The translations under genes were made by a program, and so were the position numbers. Below, piece by piece: positions 51,289-57,239 of a stretch of 64,000 nt of DNA. The stretch is from Actinomycetes bacterium (GTDB lineage: Bacteria; Actinomycetota; Acidimicrobiia; Acidimicrobiales; Acidimicrobiaceae), in contig JAKAQL010000002.1 in NCBI GenBank assembly GCA_021822605.1, positions 1 through 64,000 on the forward strand, read 5' to 3'. Position 1 is the first letter of the stretch. The number at the start of each line of letters is the position of its first letter. Under the pieces are notes generated by a model. That model saw nothing but the letters and a program-made list of their open reading frames with translations. It was not told where the DNA came from and ran no database searches.

Positions 51289-52062
51289 GTGCGATTTGCA
51301 ACCTGGAACGTCAACTCGCTTCGCGCGAGGCGTGAGTTGGTCGCCCAGTGGCTCCGCGAGCATCAACCAGACGTCCTTTGTCTGCAGGAGACAAAGGTGA
51401 AGGATGCTGAGTTTCCGGAGGATCTCTTCGAGGACGCCGGCTACCACGTTGTCCACTGGGGCGTATCTGCCTGGAACGGAGTCGCATTGGTGACCCGTGA
51501 GCCGGTCGAGCAGTTCGGGCGTGGGATCGTTGACGAAGATGAAGAGGCGCGCTGTATCGTAGGGGTTGTCGAGGGTATTCATATCTTCTCGGTGTATGTC
51601 CCCAACGGTCGGGCCCTGGACGATCCTCACTATGTCTATAAACTGGAGTGGCTCGACTCGCTTCGTGAACGTGCGATCGCAGAGATGGAACTTGGCCCAG
51701 TGATCATCGCGGGGGATTTCAATATCGCACCTACTGATGCAGATGTCTACGACCGAGCTGCTCTCGAGGGTGCCACCCATGTCAGTGAACCCGAACGGTT
51801 GGCGCTGCGGAGAATACTCGATCTCGGCTTGTTTGATTGTGGGGCGACTCTCTCGGACCCGGCCGAAGGGCCTCACTTCACTTGGTGGGACTATCGTCAA
51901 GGAGCTTTTCGACGTGGTATGGGTATGCGTATTGACTTAGTCCTGGCCTCGGAGTCACTTCGTGCGAGTGTGCGCTCGGTAGCGGTCGATCGACTAGCTC
52001 GCGCCGCTCCCAAACCATCGGATCATGCGCCGGTCGTGGTGGAGTTCGAGCACAGGAGCTAG
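51289..52062 (+). CDS. xth: Exodeoxyribonuclease III
   Basis: VRFATWNVNSLRARRELVAQWL, LCLQETKV, VIIAGDFNIAPTDADVYD, GMRIDLVLAS, PSDHAPVVVEF. Confidence 0.95.
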   Translation: MRFATWNVNSLRARRELVAQWLREHQPDVLCLQETKVKDAEFPEDLFEDAGYHVVHWGVSAWNGVALVTREPVEQFGRGIVDEDEEARCIVGVVEGIHIFSVYVPNGRALDDPHYVYKLEWLDSLRERAIAEMELGPVIIAGDFNIAPTDADVYDRAALEGATHVSEPERLALRRILDLGLFDCGATLSDPAEGPHFTWWDYRQGAFRRGMGMRIDLVLASESLRASVRSVAVDRLARAAPKPSDHAPVVVEFEHRS

Positions 52063-53912
52063 CGAACTCGACTGAGCTCGCCCCAGAGGCGATCGATAAG
52101 TTCTGTTGACTCTCTCAAAAGTGGAGTAGTCACCGCCGCGGCGACCGATTCTCGATCGGAGGGATGGGAGCGAGAGAGCTTACGCAGATCGGAATCTGAG
52201 AGGACAAGATAGGAGGCGAGCTGACGCTCCTTGCCGACGGTGACGCGCCAACGATCGAGCCGTGTCGCAACGGAGGGGTTGTCAAGTGAGTGCAGAATGC
52301 GCGCCCGTGGCTCTGCCCCCTTGATATCGAGGTGAGCGAGCATCGACGATGGTCCGCGACTCGGTCTTGACCAGCTGATGGCGAGAGAGTCCGTCGCTCT
52401 TGTCATCGCAACGTATAGAAGCCGTTGCTCTTCGGCGAGTGCCTCCGCCGAGAGCCCGTGGCGTGACGGATAGCTTTTATCGCCAATACCCACAAGGTGT
52501 ACGTGGTGCCATTGGAGACCCTTTGCGCGATGGAAGGTGGTAATGCTCACCGCGTCTACCCCCTTCACCTGCAGTCCTCGCAGTAGCTCTTCGAGAGCAA
52601 AGTGATCGGAACGGGGATCCTGCCTGCGTAGTTCATTAGCAACCTCAAGCAGTATCCGTAGGTTGGTGGTCCGCTGTGGGGTTGATGAGATCAGTGTCTC
52701 CTCAACTATGTCGCAGATCTCCGTGATCTGGAGTCGTTCCATTCGCGCCCTTCGCATCAGCTCGATCACCTCCGGTGCTGAGGCGAGCGGAGTAAGGCCA
52801 AGGACGCTGTGGGGGATATCGAAACGACGAAAGGCGTCCTCGACAGGGGACAGTTGACGAATCGTTCGCGCAAGAATCGCCATTGAGGAGTAAGGGATGC
52901 CGCGATGATGCAGTTCTACTACCTTTCTGGCTACCTGCTGAGCCTCCGCCGTGACCGAGTCCGCCCCGACGAGGTCCGGAGCCTGACCCCCTTGACGATG
53001 GGCTCGGGCGTTCACCCCCAGGTCATCGGTGGTGATAGGACCGGCAGCTGCGACGAGGGCAGCGGTGCTGCGGTAGTTGGTCGAGAGTGTGACACGGGTG
53101 AGAGTCGGGATACGGCTTGGAAGTCGGGTCATCAGCGCCGGATCCGAACCGTTCCAGCCGTAGATCGATTGGTTTGGATCGCCGACGACGGTGAGTCCAG
53201 AGAGGTCCTCACCCATCCACCGCTCGATGAAGCGGAGTTGAAGAGGGTTGACATCCTGAAACTCGTCGATGTAGACCCATCGTGCCTGGAGTCGGAGTGC
53301 CTCGCCGACGCCGTCACTGCGTCCAACGACATCCGCCGCCAGGCGCACTACGTCGGTGAGGTCCATCAGGCGTTGGCGCGCTTTGGCGCGCTCGAGCGTT
53401 GCCAAAACGGTGATGAGTTCGGTGGGGTTGGGAAGGGCGATGAGCTCGGGACTAGCTTTGAGGCTTTCAGCATCGTGGCCAAGAGAGCGGAGACGTTCGA
53501 TCTCACCCATCACGCTACGGCGGCGCGCCTCAGTGAGGTGTAACCCTAGGTCGCTAAGGAGGACGTTTGCGTCGCTGATGAGATGGGGGAGCGGCCTGTT
53601 GAGCATGGCATAACCCTCGCGGACCAACCCAAGGGCGAGCGAGTGAAAGGTGCCGCATGCTGGTGCTGGTCCGTCCAGGAGGCCGTAGAGACGCCGTGAG
53701 ACCTCCCATGCGGCTGCTCGCGTGAAACTGATCGCTACCGTCTGCGTGCTGCGGTTGGCCTGAGTGGTGATCTGGTAGGCGATCCTGTGGGTGATGACGC
53801 GGGTTTTGCCTGAGCCAGCCCCAGCGACGATGAGCAATGGCGCTGGTGCTGTGACCGCAGCTCGCTGTTCGGCGCTCAAACCCTCCAGGAGTTGTTCCGG
53901 AGCTGTCATCAT
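52059..53912 (-). CDS. UvrD/Rep-type (SF1) ATP-dependent DNA helicase
   Basis: LSAEQRAAVTAPAPLLIVAGAGSGKTRVITHRI, VYIDEFQDVNPLQLRFIERW, VGDPNQSIYGWNGSDP, AEEQRLLYVAMTRATDSLAISW. Confidence 0.94.
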   Translation of the reverse strand: MMTAPEQLLEGLSAEQRAAVTAPAPLLIVAGAGSGKTRVITHRIAYQITTQANRSTQTVAISFTRAAAWEVSRRLYGLLDGPAPACGTFHSLALGLVREGYAMLNRPLPHLISDANVLLSDLGLHLTEARRRSVMGEIERLRSLGHDAESLKASPELIALPNPTELITVLATLERAKARQRLMDLTDVVRLAADVVGRSDGVGEALRLQARWVYIDEFQDVNPLQLRFIERWMGEDLSGLTVVGDPNQSIYGWNGSDPALMTRLPSRIPTLTRVTLSTNYRSTAALVAAAGPITTDDLGVNARAHRQGGQAPDLVGADSVTAEAQQVARKVVELHHRGIPYSSMAILARTIRQLSPVEDAFRRFDIPHSVLGLTPLASAPEVIELMRRARMERLQITEICDIVEETLISSTPQRTTNLRILLEVANELRRQDPRSDHFALEELLRGLQVKGVDAVSITTFHRAKGLQWHHVHLVGIGDKSYPSRHGLSAEALAEEQRLLYVAMTRATDSLAISWSRPSRGPSSMLAHLDIKGAEPRARILHSLDNPSVATRLDRWRVTVGKERQLASYLVLSDSDLRKLSRSHPSDRESVAAAVTTPLLRESTELIDRLWGELSRVR

Positions 53913-55262
53913 CTAGTGAGGTGCTGCTGGAGCCGCACAGCAGAACCAGGGTTCGCTCATAACGGCGGTGCTCGGCGCGCTCACCTTGGGAGTGCGGACA
54001 CACTGAGCAGAGAGGCCGTTTGCCTCATAGACCGCCGTGACGATCTGGGCGAAGGTGGTCTCGAAGCTGTCCTCACCGGCCTGGGCGGCTAGCTGATAGA
54101 GCCGATCGCGGAGACGAGGTAGACGTTCATCCTGGTAACGAACGGTATAGCCCATGACGCTGGCGTCGTAGGGGCCAAAGTCGGTCTCGTTGACCGGCAA
54201 CAGTGAGTTGGTGGGGGTGAGCAGTTCGATCGAGTACTGGATAGGTTCTACCACCTGAACGAGGTCTGATTCGACGATGAAGTCAACGATGTCTACCAGG
54301 TCGCCCATCGTGGTCCACGGGGTAAACGGCACGAAGGTCGGATGCATGGCGACGCCGTTGGCGTAGAGCAAATCTCTGGCGACTGACACGTCGGCTGCGG
54401 TGTGACCCTTGTCGAGGTGAGCGAGAACGTCGTCATTGAGACTCTCGACGGCGGAGATCACGAAGTTGACGTGACTCGCCGCCAACGTTGAGAGGAGGTC
54501 TCGATGGCGAAGAATCTCAGAGATTTTGGTGGTGATGTCGAAGGTGACCCACGGTGCCTTCTGAGCCAAGGTGGTGAGGACCTTCAGCGAGTGCTTCGGA
54601 GCGTTGAGGAAGTCAGGATCTCCAAAACTGAGATGCTGGGCACCAGCTTCGATCTGCGCGAGACCGTCCGCGATGACCGCCTCGGCATCGTTGATGGCAA
54701 TTCTCCCGTTCCAAATGGCAGCCACCGGACAATGGAGGCACCGATGTCGGCAGCCTACCGAGGTTTCAAGGTAGCCAGTGACAAGGTCTTGGTTGGCAAT
54801 CCTGACGCTGCGATAGCTATCGAGCCCCATGAGCGGTGTCCGATTGACACGGTACGCTCGTCGACCCGTCGCCTTTGGAATGCCAGGCTGGGCAGAGACG
54901 GAAGGGTGCTGTACCAGTGTCGCAAGTTCAGCAGCGGTAGCTCGGTTCAGCCAGAGTGCCGCCGGTGGATCCTGCAGTGATTCCTTCAACACGGTGGCAT
55001 AGAGCCCCACCACGATCAGCTGTCGTTCTGGTTGATCGTGATCAAGGGAGGCGAGCAGGTCCCTGGCGACGAGAGCGCCGGTCAACATCGGTGCGGTGAG
55101 GATGACCCGTGAAGCACGATTGATCGCTTCGATGGCGACTGAGAGTGGAGTCTTTGCCATGTCCAAAACCTCAAGGGAGCCCTCAGGTAGTTCAGCGGCG
55201 ACCTCGGCGGCAAGCTGGGGTTGGTGGCCGAGTTCGTAGGTGGAGATGAAGAGCACAGACAT
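53913..55262 (-). CDS. Radical SAM protein with Cys-Cys C-terminal tail (CUAEP/CCAEP-tail type, variant CCAAP)
   Basis: CxxxCxxC in TSVGCRHRCLHCPVAAIWNG; FGDPDFLNAP; C-terminus SEPWFCCAAPAAPH. Confidence 0.88.
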   Translation of the reverse strand: MSVLFISTYELGHQPQLAAEVAAELPEGSLEVLDMAKTPLSVAIEAINRASRVILTAPMLTGALVARDLLASLDHDQPERQLIVVGLYATVLKESLQDPPAALWLNRATAAELATLVQHPSVSAQPGIPKATGRRAYRVNRTPLMGLDSYRSVRIANQDLVTGYLETSVGCRHRCLHCPVAAIWNGRIAINDAEAVIADGLAQIEAGAQHLSFGDPDFLNAPKHSLKVLTTLAQKAPWVTFDITTKISEILRHRDLLSTLAASHVNFVISAVESLNDDVLAHLDKGHTAADVSVARDLLYANGVAMHPTFVPFTPWTTMGDLVDIVDFIVESDLVQVVEPIQYSIELLTPTNSLLPVNETDFGPYDASVMGYTVRYQDERLPRLRDRLYQLAAQAGEDSFETTFAQIVTAVYEANGLSAQCVRTPKVSAPSTAVMSEPWFCCAAPAAPH

Positions 55263-55271
55263 AAGACCAGT

Positions 55272-56504
55272 CTACTGGTCAGAGTCCTCAGCGACAGGGT
55301 CGATGACGATGGTGAGGTGGGCGCTCGCCACAGCGAGGGAATGGCTCACGCTGGTGTGCGTCAACCCTTCTGCGAAAATGAAGCCAAGATAGCGATCGGT
55401 GAGAGGTGGCGGATAGACCAAGGTTCCTGGATTGACGGTGATCTCGACGCCTGTGATACCGCTGGTCGCCAGAGCCATATCGATACCCCTGACCTCGCGA
55501 AAAGTTCCCATCCTTGGCGTGGGGATCATATAGATGCCGACTGACCTATTGTGGCGTCGAATGGCGCTCCGATCTCCAAGAGCCCGTTGCAAAATGATAT
55601 CCTCAAGGCGCTGTCCATCACCGAACTGAATCGCTGCGGAGCAGCGACCGCCAATCGATCGTGGAGCGAGCTCCAGGATGGTCGCGCGCCCATTGGTAAG
55701 CCGTAGTTCCGCATGAACGGGCGTGTCTGCCAATCCAAGCGCACGAGCACCACGTTCTACCGCGTTCGTGAGTTCTCGTTGCTGTCCGGGTGCGAGCTTG
55801 GCTGGCCCGAGATAGGTCGACTCCCAAAAGTAAGGACCCTCGCCGATATCGGGTTTGGCAAAGATCATCAGGACTTCGAGATCCTCGCCGTTGAGAATGC
55901 CCTCGACGGCGAACTCGGGCCCCTCGACGTAGCTCTCGAGCAGTAGCGGTGCTGTCGGGTCGATGGCATCCTTGAGGATCTTCAGATCCTGCGCGAGGGT
56001 GGTGTTGGTAACCCGGATGACACCGCGAGAGGCCGTTTCATGCGGTGGCTTCACTATGAAGCTCTCCCCAAGGCCAGCAACGATCGCATCGATTTCGTAT
56101 TTGCTGACGAGCGAAAGGGACCCAAGCGTGGTGACCATGTACTTGGGCTGGCTGAGTTCGGCCTGGCCAAGTACCTCTCGAAGTGAGAGCTTGTCGACGG
56201 CACGCTCGACGGCTTGGGCTTTGCCGATCGTGAGACCGAGTTGGTCGCTAAGGGTTGCCGCGAGGCGCGTAGAGGTTTCGTCGATGCCGATCACGAGCGT
56301 TGGTGCGAGGTCGAAGAGGGTGTTGACGAGGAACGCCAACTCTTCCGGGGGTGGCGACATGCTGCTGACATGGAGACCGACGTCCCCGATGGGAACACTA
56401 GCGTCGGTGAGCAGGGTGAGTCGCATGCCTGTCCGCGCCGCCGCCTGTAGAAAGGCGTCGGCGCGGTAGCTCTCAGCCGGTACGACGAGGACGATGTGTT
56501 GCAT
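55272..56504 (-). CDS. ATP-grasp domain protein (carboxylate-amine ligase superfamily)
   Basis: ESFIVKPPHETASRGVIRV, LLLESYVEGPEFAVEGIL, VHAELRLTNGRATILELAPRSIGG. Confidence 0.9.
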   Translation of the reverse strand: MQHIVLVVPAESYRADAFLQAAARTGMRLTLLTDASVPIGDVGLHVSSMSPPPEELAFLVNTLFDLAPTLVIGIDETSTRLAATLSDQLGLTIGKAQAVERAVDKLSLREVLGQAELSQPKYMVTTLGSLSLVSKYEIDAIVAGLGESFIVKPPHETASRGVIRVTNTTLAQDLKILKDAIDPTAPLLLESYVEGPEFAVEGILNGEDLEVLMIFAKPDIGEGPYFWESTYLGPAKLAPGQQRELTNAVERGARALGLADTPVHAELRLTNGRATILELAPRSIGGRCSAAIQFGDGQRLEDIILQRALGDRSAIRRHNRSVGIYMIPTPRMGTFREVRGIDMALATSGITGVEITVNPGTLVYPPPLTDRYLGFIFAEGLTHTSVSHSLAVASAHLTIVIDPVAEDSDQ

Positions 56505-56612: not shown

Positions 56613-57239
56613 ATGGGAGCGATGAGCGATTTTAGAGTTACTGATGCAGCGGTGGGAGTCGTGCTGGATGCGCTGGCTGATGAGGGTACGACTGACGCAC
56701 TGGGGCTTTGGGTAGAGGTCGCTGGCAACGATGGGACTTCATTCATGTATGACGTCTATTTCCAAGAGTTGGCCCAGGTCGATTCCGAGGACTTACGACT
56801 GCGTTTTGGCGAACTGAGTGTGGTCATCCCTCGGGATTCCATCTCTCGGCTCGCCGGGGCAACTCTTGAGGTCGGTGCTGACGGGGAGCTCGCCATCACC
56901 AACCCGAACACTCCAACCCCTGAGGCAACGGACCTGCCTGATCTGGGACCGGAGGCACTCGCCAACGATCTCGCCCTCCGCGTCAACGCTATTCTCGAGG
57001 AGCAGGTCAACCCGGCGATCGCCGCTCATGGAGGTTACGCCGAGCTAGTAGGAGTCGTTGAGGAGCGTGCCTACGTTCTCATGGGTGGGGGCTGTCAGGG
57101 TTGTGGCTTGGCCGCCATGACGCTGTCACAAGGCATCGCGACAGCGATTCAGGATGCGGTCCCAGAGATTATCGACGTGGTTGATGTGACGAACCATGCC
57201 GCTGGCAATAATCCTTACTATCAGCCTGCCAAGAAGTAG
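56613..57239 (+). CDS. NfuA-like Fe-S biogenesis protein (A-type-like domain plus NifU C-terminal domain)
   Basis: C-terminal VNPAIAAHGGYAELVGVVEERAYVLMGGGCQGCGLAAMTLSQGIATAIQDAVPEI with CxxC. Confidence 0.92.
   Translation: MGAMSDFRVTDAAVGVVLDALADEGTTDALGLWVEVAGNDGTSFMYDVYFQELAQVDSEDLRLRFGELSVVIPRDSISRLAGATLEVGADGELAITNPNTPTPEATDLPDLGPEALANDLALRVNAILEEQVNPAIAAHGGYAELVGVVEERAYVLMGGGCQGCGLAAMTLSQGIATAIQDAVPEIIDVVDVTNHAAGNNPYYQPAKK

What the first reader, a model, noticed from the sequence alone, without database searches (positions are those of the whole stretch)
53913..53951. Variant redox tail WFCCAAPAAPH on the radical SAM protein: a Cys counterpart of a Sec-containing tail
Seen: codons TGG TTC TGC TGT GCG GCT CCA GCA GCA CCT CAC TAG. 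The vicinal Cys pair lies nine residues from the C-terminus; the second Cys codon (TGT) is one substitution from TGA. Known (from memory): relatives carry CUAEP or CCAEP tails. Here the Glu is replaced by Ala (CCAAP). Inference: a mobile redox-active or metal-binding tail.
Basis: partly seen in the sequence, partly recalled or inferred. Interest (0 to 1): 0.66.

Follow-up and report, generated by a model that had tools for sequence, protein, structure and literature searches.

The report
Cysteine version of a selenocysteine tail
A radical SAM enzyme of an acid-loving actinobacterium ends in a cysteine pair where many relatives carry selenocysteine, and across bacteria its gene repeatedly sits beside an ATP-grasp ligase gene and iron-sulfur-cluster assembly genes, a link that points to an unstudied pathway and that I did not find in the papers searched.

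Summary
The tail WFCCAAPAAPH is real (residues 439-449 of a 449-aa radical SAM protein, window 53913-55262, minus strand). In homologues W, both C/Sec positions and P are invariant. At the second Cys, 55 of 142 distinct homologues have in-frame UGA; 23 of 24 such genomes tested carry selA, and a covarying SECIS hairpin follows the UGA. The tree needs about 20 Sec/Cys changes. The window genome has no selA match and no selB, selD or tRNA-Sec match above cut-off: a settled all-Cys form. Glu-to-Ala arose once, in a five-member clade that also lost the downstream T..Q motif and shortened the tail. The protein scores below the curated cut-off of NCBIfam NF040546 (360 vs 500 bits): a divergent variant. 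New here: in the window and across about nine phyla the gene lies near an ATP-grasp ligase and/or Nfu, SUF or YggX genes, not arsenic genes. The sister family is ArsL (RCCLKC tail), which makes arsinothricin. Most likely the tail holds a thiophilic substrate or metal at the radical SAM site, the ligase finishes the product, and the pathway serves iron-sulfur or iron handling. The chemistry is inferred, not shown.

The parts
53913..55262 (-). divergent CUAEP/CCAEP-type radical SAM protein, 449 aa
   Evidence: NF040546 359.8 bits (cut-off 500), Pfam Radical_SAM 33.0 bits
54729..54752 (-). radical SAM [4Fe-4S] motif CRHRCLHC (Cys171, Cys175, Cys178)
   Evidence: invariant Cys in 40 and 80 homologues
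53913..53951 (-). C-terminal tail PWFCCAAPAAPH and stop
53937..53939 (-). TGT codon of Cys442, the position that is UGA/Sec in relatives
55272..56504 (-). ATP-grasp ligase (ATP-grasp_4 plus LAL_C2), 410 aa, 9 nt upstream of the radical SAM gene; conserved partner
   Evidence: Pfam; adjacency
56613..57239 (+). Nfu/NifU-domain Fe-S carrier protein, divergent neighbour
   Evidence: Pfam NifU 71 bits, NCBIfam NfuA below cut-off; conserved adjacency
52059..53912 (-). UvrD-type helicase whose ATG directly follows the radical SAM stop; likely co-transcribed, no evident functional tie

Best explanation
Shown: this is a divergent, all-cysteine member of the wider tail-bearing radical SAM group to which the selenocysteine-tailed CUAEP proteins belong. 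It forms a two-gene unit with an ATP-grasp ligase, next to an Nfu gene, and the group as a whole neighbours Fe-S cluster assembly or iron-trafficking genes in many phyla. Inferred: the C-terminal Cys-Cys (or Cys-Sec) pair reaches the radical SAM site and holds a thiophilic substrate or metal, as the RCCLKC tail of the sister enzyme ArsL is reported to hold arsenite. [quoted passage not shown] The ATP-grasp enzyme then ligates an amino acid to the product. The product, or a modified carrier protein, serves Fe-S assembly or iron handling.
For: Tail position and identity invariant in 40 and 80 homologues; all 80 cross-phylum loci have C-[C/U]-[A/S]-[E/A]-P. UGA at Cys442 with SECIS covariation: 86% of stem cells paired versus 31-53% when slid; Cys forms 43%. 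selA in 23/24 Sec-form genomes. ATP-grasp partner within 2.5 kb in 62/81 and 41/81 loci. Nfu within 2.5 kb in 61/81 and 33/81; YggX 10/81 and DUF169 12/81 in the cross-phylum set. Runs of suf genes lead directly into the radical SAM gene in L160 and L174. Control: 37 other window genes as decoys hit on average 0.30 of 52 non-actinobacterial loci, versus 19 for ATP-grasp, 11 Nfu, 11 YggX and 22 for any Fe-S/iron gene. Full-length homology to the RCCLKC/ArsL group: hhalign probability 100, E 2e-87, 401 columns. Of five RCCLKC/ArsL plasmid clusters read, four hold an ATP-grasp gene, four arsM and four an ArsR-type regulator.
Against: I found no biochemistry for any CUAEP/CCAEP protein. ACP chemistry is carried over from a sister family with 25% identity and a different tail. 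The ATP-grasp of RCCLKC clusters is only distantly like the window's (22-26% identity over 220-255 aa), so the shared partner may be coincidence. About half of the non-actinobacterial loci show neither ATP-grasp nor an Fe-S gene within the flanks read (27 of 52 show one; some contigs are short). Synteny inside Actinomycetota is partly inherited, so those counts are not independent. The distance from tail to cluster could not be measured (no coordinates given).
Confidence: 0.42

Rival explanations
1. Redox tail: the Cys-Cys or Cys-Sec pair cycles between dithiol/selenolthiol and disulfide/selenenylsulfide and passes electrons to the enzyme or its substrate, as the C-terminal Gly-Cys-Sec-Gly of mammalian thioredoxin reductase does.
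For: Vicinal Cys-Sec near the C-terminus; repeated Sec/Cys swaps, common in redox enzymes (general knowledge).
Against: No thioredoxin or flavin partner among the conserved neighbours; the sister family's tail is reported to bind arsenite (recalled); the canonical tail is modelled as docked.
Confidence: 0.22
2. Metal or cluster arm: the pair binds Fe, Zn or an Fe-S cluster and hands it to or takes it from Nfu, SufA or YggX; the radical SAM step serves that transfer or repair.
For: Neighbour genes are Fe-S carriers and an iron-trafficking protein.
Against: Does not explain the ATP-grasp ligase partner; a two-ligand site is weak for a cluster.
Confidence: 0.17
3. Arsenic enzyme: the protein is an ArsL-like arsenite-modifying enzyme.
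For: Full-length homology to ArsL; vicinal thiols bind As(III) well; the window's close relatives include acidophilic iron oxidisers and mine-site MAGs.
Against: ars genes almost absent from 160 neighbourhoods (one ArsM-like and two ArsB-like); no RCCLKC tail; 187 bits on NF040542 against 450.
Confidence: 0.09
4. Decaying tail: after the loss of Sec decoding the window clade relaxed the tail, which no longer has its ancestral role.
For: Glu, Thr and Gln lost and tail shortened in five species; low pLDDT of the last residues.
Against: Glu437 (SE-x-W), Trp439, both Cys and Pro445 are kept in all five; the operon with ATP-grasp and the Nfu neighbour are kept.
Confidence: 0.1

Closest known systems
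CUAEP/CCAEP-tail radical SAM (seleno)protein, NCBIfam NF040546
   Same: Whole length (profile 1-463 of 468), invariant core motifs, tail position, E-x-W-F-C-[C/U]; same ATP-grasp and Nfu neighbours; falls with this group (100% branch) against RCCLKC in the tree.
   Different: 359.8 bits against a cut-off of 500; CCAAP instead of C[C/U]AEP; lost T and Q at +4 and +7; shorter tail; no Sec machinery in the genome.
ArsL / RCCLKC-tail radical SAM protein, NCBIfam NF040542 (arsinothricin biosynthesis)
   Same: Full-length homologue (hhalign 100%, 401 columns); C-terminal vicinal Cys pair; ATP-grasp gene in four of five clusters read.
   Different: RCCLKC tail with three Cys and no long linker; lies with arsM, arsR, arsN or arsQ; 187 bits for the window protein against a cut-off of 450.
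B12-type radical SAM fold: AprD4, OxsB, TsrM, MgmA, CysS
   Same: Overall fold of the predicted model (Foldseek E 2e-14 to 1e-9).
   Different: 12-17% identity; no comparable Cys tail known to me; cobalamin binding not tested.

Membership tests
NCBIfam NF040546 rSAM_CUAEP (equivalog) | curated score of at least 500 bits | tested here: not met
   359.8 bits. Same-clade relatives L061, L063 and L147 score 359, 306 and 307, neighbouring Sec-tailed L085 387 and L093 374. ArsL-type proteins score 336-373 on this model, so score alone does not place the protein.
NCBIfam NF040546 rSAM_CUAEP (equivalog) | C-terminal C-[U/C]-A-E-P tail | tested here: not met
   C-C-A-A-P; C, C, A and P kept, Glu replaced by Ala
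wider CUAEP/CCAEP-tail group | closer to CUAEP/CCAEP proteins than to RCCLKC proteins in a tree built without the tail | tested here: met
   100% branch separates RCCLKC from all 142 others; the window sits with eight others including a Sec-tailed protein (93%); FastTree only
Radical SAM superfamily | CX3CX2C motif and Pfam Radical_SAM over cut-off | tested here: met
   Cys171, 175, 178; 33.0 bits against 29.5
ArsL / RCCLKC (NF040542) | RCCLKC tail, score over 450, ars gene context | tested here: not met
   no such tail, 187 bits, no ars genes next to it
ArsL-type chemistry | cleavage of SAM to a 3-amino-3-carboxypropyl radical | not testable with these tools
   needs an enzyme assay
Selenoprotein | in-frame UGA plus SECIS plus selABCD in the genome | tested here: not met
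   TGT codon; no selA match, selB, selD and tRNA-Sec only below cut-off; no hairpin like that of the Sec forms

The most novel reading that the evidence does not exclude
CUAEP/CCAEP radical SAM proteins and their ATP-grasp partners form an unrecognised, widespread (seleno)enzyme pathway of Fe-S cluster biogenesis or iron handling, making a small molecule or a carrier modification with noncanonical SAM chemistry akin to ArsL.
Probability: 0.4. Interest if true: 0.82.

Novelty: new variant of a known kind. Interest (0 to 1): 0.56.

Why it matters
The protein family carries an NCBI name that only describes its tail, and I found no paper that mentions it. The neighbourhood evidence gives a testable functional assignment (Fe-S assembly or iron handling) and a partner enzyme (ATP-grasp). 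The link to ArsL suggests that Cys or Sec tails may be a general way for radical SAM enzymes to hold soft inorganic substrates. The natural Sec/Cys swaps are a ready experiment on what selenium adds. Sec-tailed members are also easily mis-annotated: the Thermomicrobium roseum record ends the protein at the UGA.

Tried and rejected
Chance or frameshift origin of the tail: rejected by two congeneric genomes and invariance. A hidden selenoprotein in this genome: rejected. The TGA that the genome search flagged as 'inside' in G081 is the true stop after CCAAPPR. Arsenic context: nearly absent. PDB sequence search with the single protein gave only chance-level hits. Literature: 'CUAEP', 'RCCLKC', and radical SAM with ATP-grasp plus selenoprotein or suf operon gave no papers; a 2026 selenoproteome review does not contain the word CUAEP; one broad search was useless; the ArsL JACS 2024 paper is not held. 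Many neighbour 'families' in the first clustering were antisense shadow ORFs of GC-rich genes and were dropped. No promoter or terminator match in the intergenic region. The tail-to-cluster distance could not be computed, since the models come without coordinates.

Full report
Observation. On the minus strand, 53913-53951 reads CCC TGG TTC TGC TGT GCG GCT CCA GCA GCA CCT CAC TAG, the last 13 codons of a 449-aa ORF (55262-53913). The protein has six Cys: three in the radical SAM motif CRHRCLHC (171, 175, 178), one at 421, and the pair 441-442. Two genomes of the same genus end the same way (SEPWFCCAAPAQPR, SEPWFCCAAPAKPR), so there is no frameshift.

What the protein is. Pfam gives Radical_SAM (33.0 bits, cut-off 29.5). 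NCBIfam gives NF040546 'CUAEP/CCAEP-tail radical SAM (seleno)protein' with E 2e-107 and 359.8 bits, but the curated cut-off is 500; NF040542 (ArsL) follows with 187 bits. Its nearest relatives also score low on NF040546 (359, 306, 307; a Sec-tailed protein near it on the tree 387), and ArsL-type proteins themselves score 336-373. So score alone does not place it, but the tree does. In a tree built without the tail (146 rows, FastTree) a 100% branch separates four RCCLKC/ArsL proteins from all 142 others. The window lies in a nine-row group (93%) that includes a Sec-tailed protein of the same bacterial family. I therefore call it a divergent variant of the wider CUAEP/CCAEP group and not a strict NF040546 member.

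G465 of the same family has a contig of the same length (109,939) as Ferrithrix thermotolerans L193, and G081 is a single contig of 2,158,157 bases, which from memory matches Acidimicrobium ferrooxidans; so the window is probably from an acidophilic member of Acidimicrobiaceae (inference).

The Sec connection. UGA replaces the second Cys codon in 55 of the 142 homologues on the tree. Three lines say that this UGA is read as selenocysteine. First, 23 of 24 Sec-form genomes have selA (one of them, G171, only as a partial match below cut-off in an 83% complete genome; the one without, G394, is 78% complete), against 15 of 54 Cys-form genomes (Fisher p = 9e-9). Second, a 7-bp hairpin with loop AGUU[C/G/U] lies 15 nt after the first base of the UGA in the Sec forms: 86% of pair cells are standard pairs, with two to four pair types at six of the seven pairs, against 31-53% when one arm is slid by 1-3 nt; Cys forms give 43%. 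Folding z-scores of Sec and Cys forms differ with p = 6e-13 (related sequences, so this is a guide only). Third, the frame continues in register through AEPTxxQ. The window genome (95% complete) has no selA match, selB only below cut-off (best 203 bits against 242, a region like EF-Tu), tRNA-Sec only below the gathering score, and selD only as a 56-bit match against a cut-off of 125. Parsimony needs about 20 Sec/Cys changes, at least nine of them forced by well-supported branches.

The CCAAP variant. Glu to Ala happened once on this tree, in a clade of five (window, two congeners, the complete genome G081 and MAG L147; 99%). A separate clade has CCAVP. Canonical tails keep Thr at +4 and Gln at +7 even in Cys forms (80 of 97 and 87 of 97 loci), although the RNA hairpin is gone there, so these residues are probably kept for the protein's sake. 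The window clade has lost Glu, Thr and Gln and ends two to four residues after CCAAP. AlphaFold2 models the window protein well (mean pLDDT 92.6), but the last nine residues average about 53. In a canonical member (L156) the same region has block means of 86 and 83, with a short helix after the pair, so the canonical tail looks docked. Its position relative to the cluster could not be measured.

Surroundings. The radical SAM gene starts 9 nt after an ATP-grasp gene (55272-56504, ATP-grasp_4 plus LAL_C2), and an Nfu/NifU-domain gene (56613-57239) diverges from it. The pairing is conserved. In 81 loci from the same order and phylum (window included), ATP-grasp lies within 2.5 kb in 62 and Nfu in 61; in 81 loci of a cross-phylum sample (80 from genome contigs, one plasmid), ATP-grasp in 41, Nfu in 33, YggX in 10 and DUF169 in 12. 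The arrangements differ between phyla: sufC-sufD-sufS-sufU-sufT-sufA then radical SAM then Nfu in an Ignavibacteriales MAG (L160), the same order with sufC cut by the contig end in a Bacteroidetes MAG (L174), Nfu then radical SAM then ATP-grasp in Rhodospirillaceae/Rhodospirillales MAGs (L175, L194), radical SAM then Nfu then ATP-grasp in Rokubacteria (L177, L208), YggX then radical SAM in Thermogemmatispora, Dictyobacter, Chloroflexi and Anaerolineae (L162, L166, L168, L189, L201, L210), radical SAM then ATP-grasp then YggX in Acidobacteria (L187, L214), and a SufA-like gene then ATP-grasp then radical SAM in a gammaproteobacterium (L199) (Pfam and NCBIfam identities for representatives). As a control, 37 other genes of the window were searched in the 52 non-actinobacterial loci and hit on average 0.30 loci each; ATP-grasp 19, Nfu 11, YggX 11, DUF169 10, any Fe-S/iron gene 22 (the Fe-S and ATP-grasp counts come from several queries each, but the single window ATP-grasp and Nfu proteins as queries still hit 19 and 10). 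In 18 genomes checked there are only one to three NifU-domain genes each, so adjacency by chance is unlikely. Counts inside Actinomycetota are not independent of each other.

The ArsL connection. A plasmid search found RCCLKC-tail proteins, one annotated as ArsL; of five clusters read, four hold arsM, four an ArsR-type regulator and four an ATP-grasp gene. Profile comparison with the CUAEP/CCAEP alignment gives probability 100, E 2e-87 over 401 columns. ArsL joins the 3-amino-3-carboxypropyl group of SAM to As(III) (PMC8552651; PMC12159101 cites Yao et al. 2024, J Am Chem Soc 146:21214). From memory of that 2024 abstract, truncation and mutagenesis showed that the RCCLKC tail binds arsenite; the paper is not held here, so this is a recalled lead and not a test. 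CUAEP/CCAEP neighbourhoods almost never hold ars genes (one ArsM-like and two ArsB-like matches in 160 loci).

Most likely mechanism. Shown: conserved Cys-[Cys/Sec] tail, Sec decoding signals in relatives, ATP-grasp partner, Fe-S/iron neighbours, homology to ArsL. Inferred: the tail pair holds a thiophilic substrate or metal at the SAM site; the enzyme attaches a SAM-derived fragment; the ligase adds an amino acid; the product helps Fe-S assembly or iron handling. I put the tail's identity as the Cys counterpart of a Sec tail at about 0.95, a functional tie of the family to Fe-S or iron handling at about 0.7, and the ArsL-like tail and SAM chemistry at about 0.35. Redox-tail, metal-arm, arsenic and decaying-tail rivals are scored in their field.

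Novelty and value. The tail type is already named by NCBI, so the Sec/Cys relation is not new in kind. I found no paper on the family or on its link to Fe-S genes. The window protein is a below-threshold variant with a shortened tail. The family-wide link to Fe-S assembly and the common ATP-grasp logic with the ArsL group are the parts worth following.

Noticed in passing
L104:9438-10286; 19 genomes of the window's order: A Cys-rich protein of about 280 aa lies directly downstream of the CCAEP radical SAM gene on the same strand; no Pfam or NCBIfam match.
   Followed up: partly
L146:4938-6383 (Thermomicrobium roseum megaplasmid): RefSeq ends the protein WP_012643191.1 at ...LTESWFC, i.e. at the UGA; reading on gives WFCUAEP.
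   Followed up: yes
G611 (same bacterial family): Cys-tailed, no selA, yet a tRNA-Sec match of 66 bits remains: perhaps a recent loss of Sec decoding or an incomplete assembly.
   Followed up: no
window 52059-53912: A UvrD-type helicase gene starts at the base after the radical SAM stop; homologues follow the radical SAM gene in other genomes of the same bacterial family.
   Followed up: partly
L144 (plasmid NZ_CP028479.1) and L145 (plasmid NZ_CP134727.1): RCCLKC radical SAM, ATP-grasp, MFS transporter, putative arsM and a GTP-binding protein form a cluster that may make an arsinothricin-like compound.
   Followed up: no
L173:4180-4917 and 12 other cross-phylum loci: DUF169 protein (PF02596) beside the CUAEP/CCAEP gene in 13 of 81 cross-phylum loci; function unknown.
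   Followed up: partly
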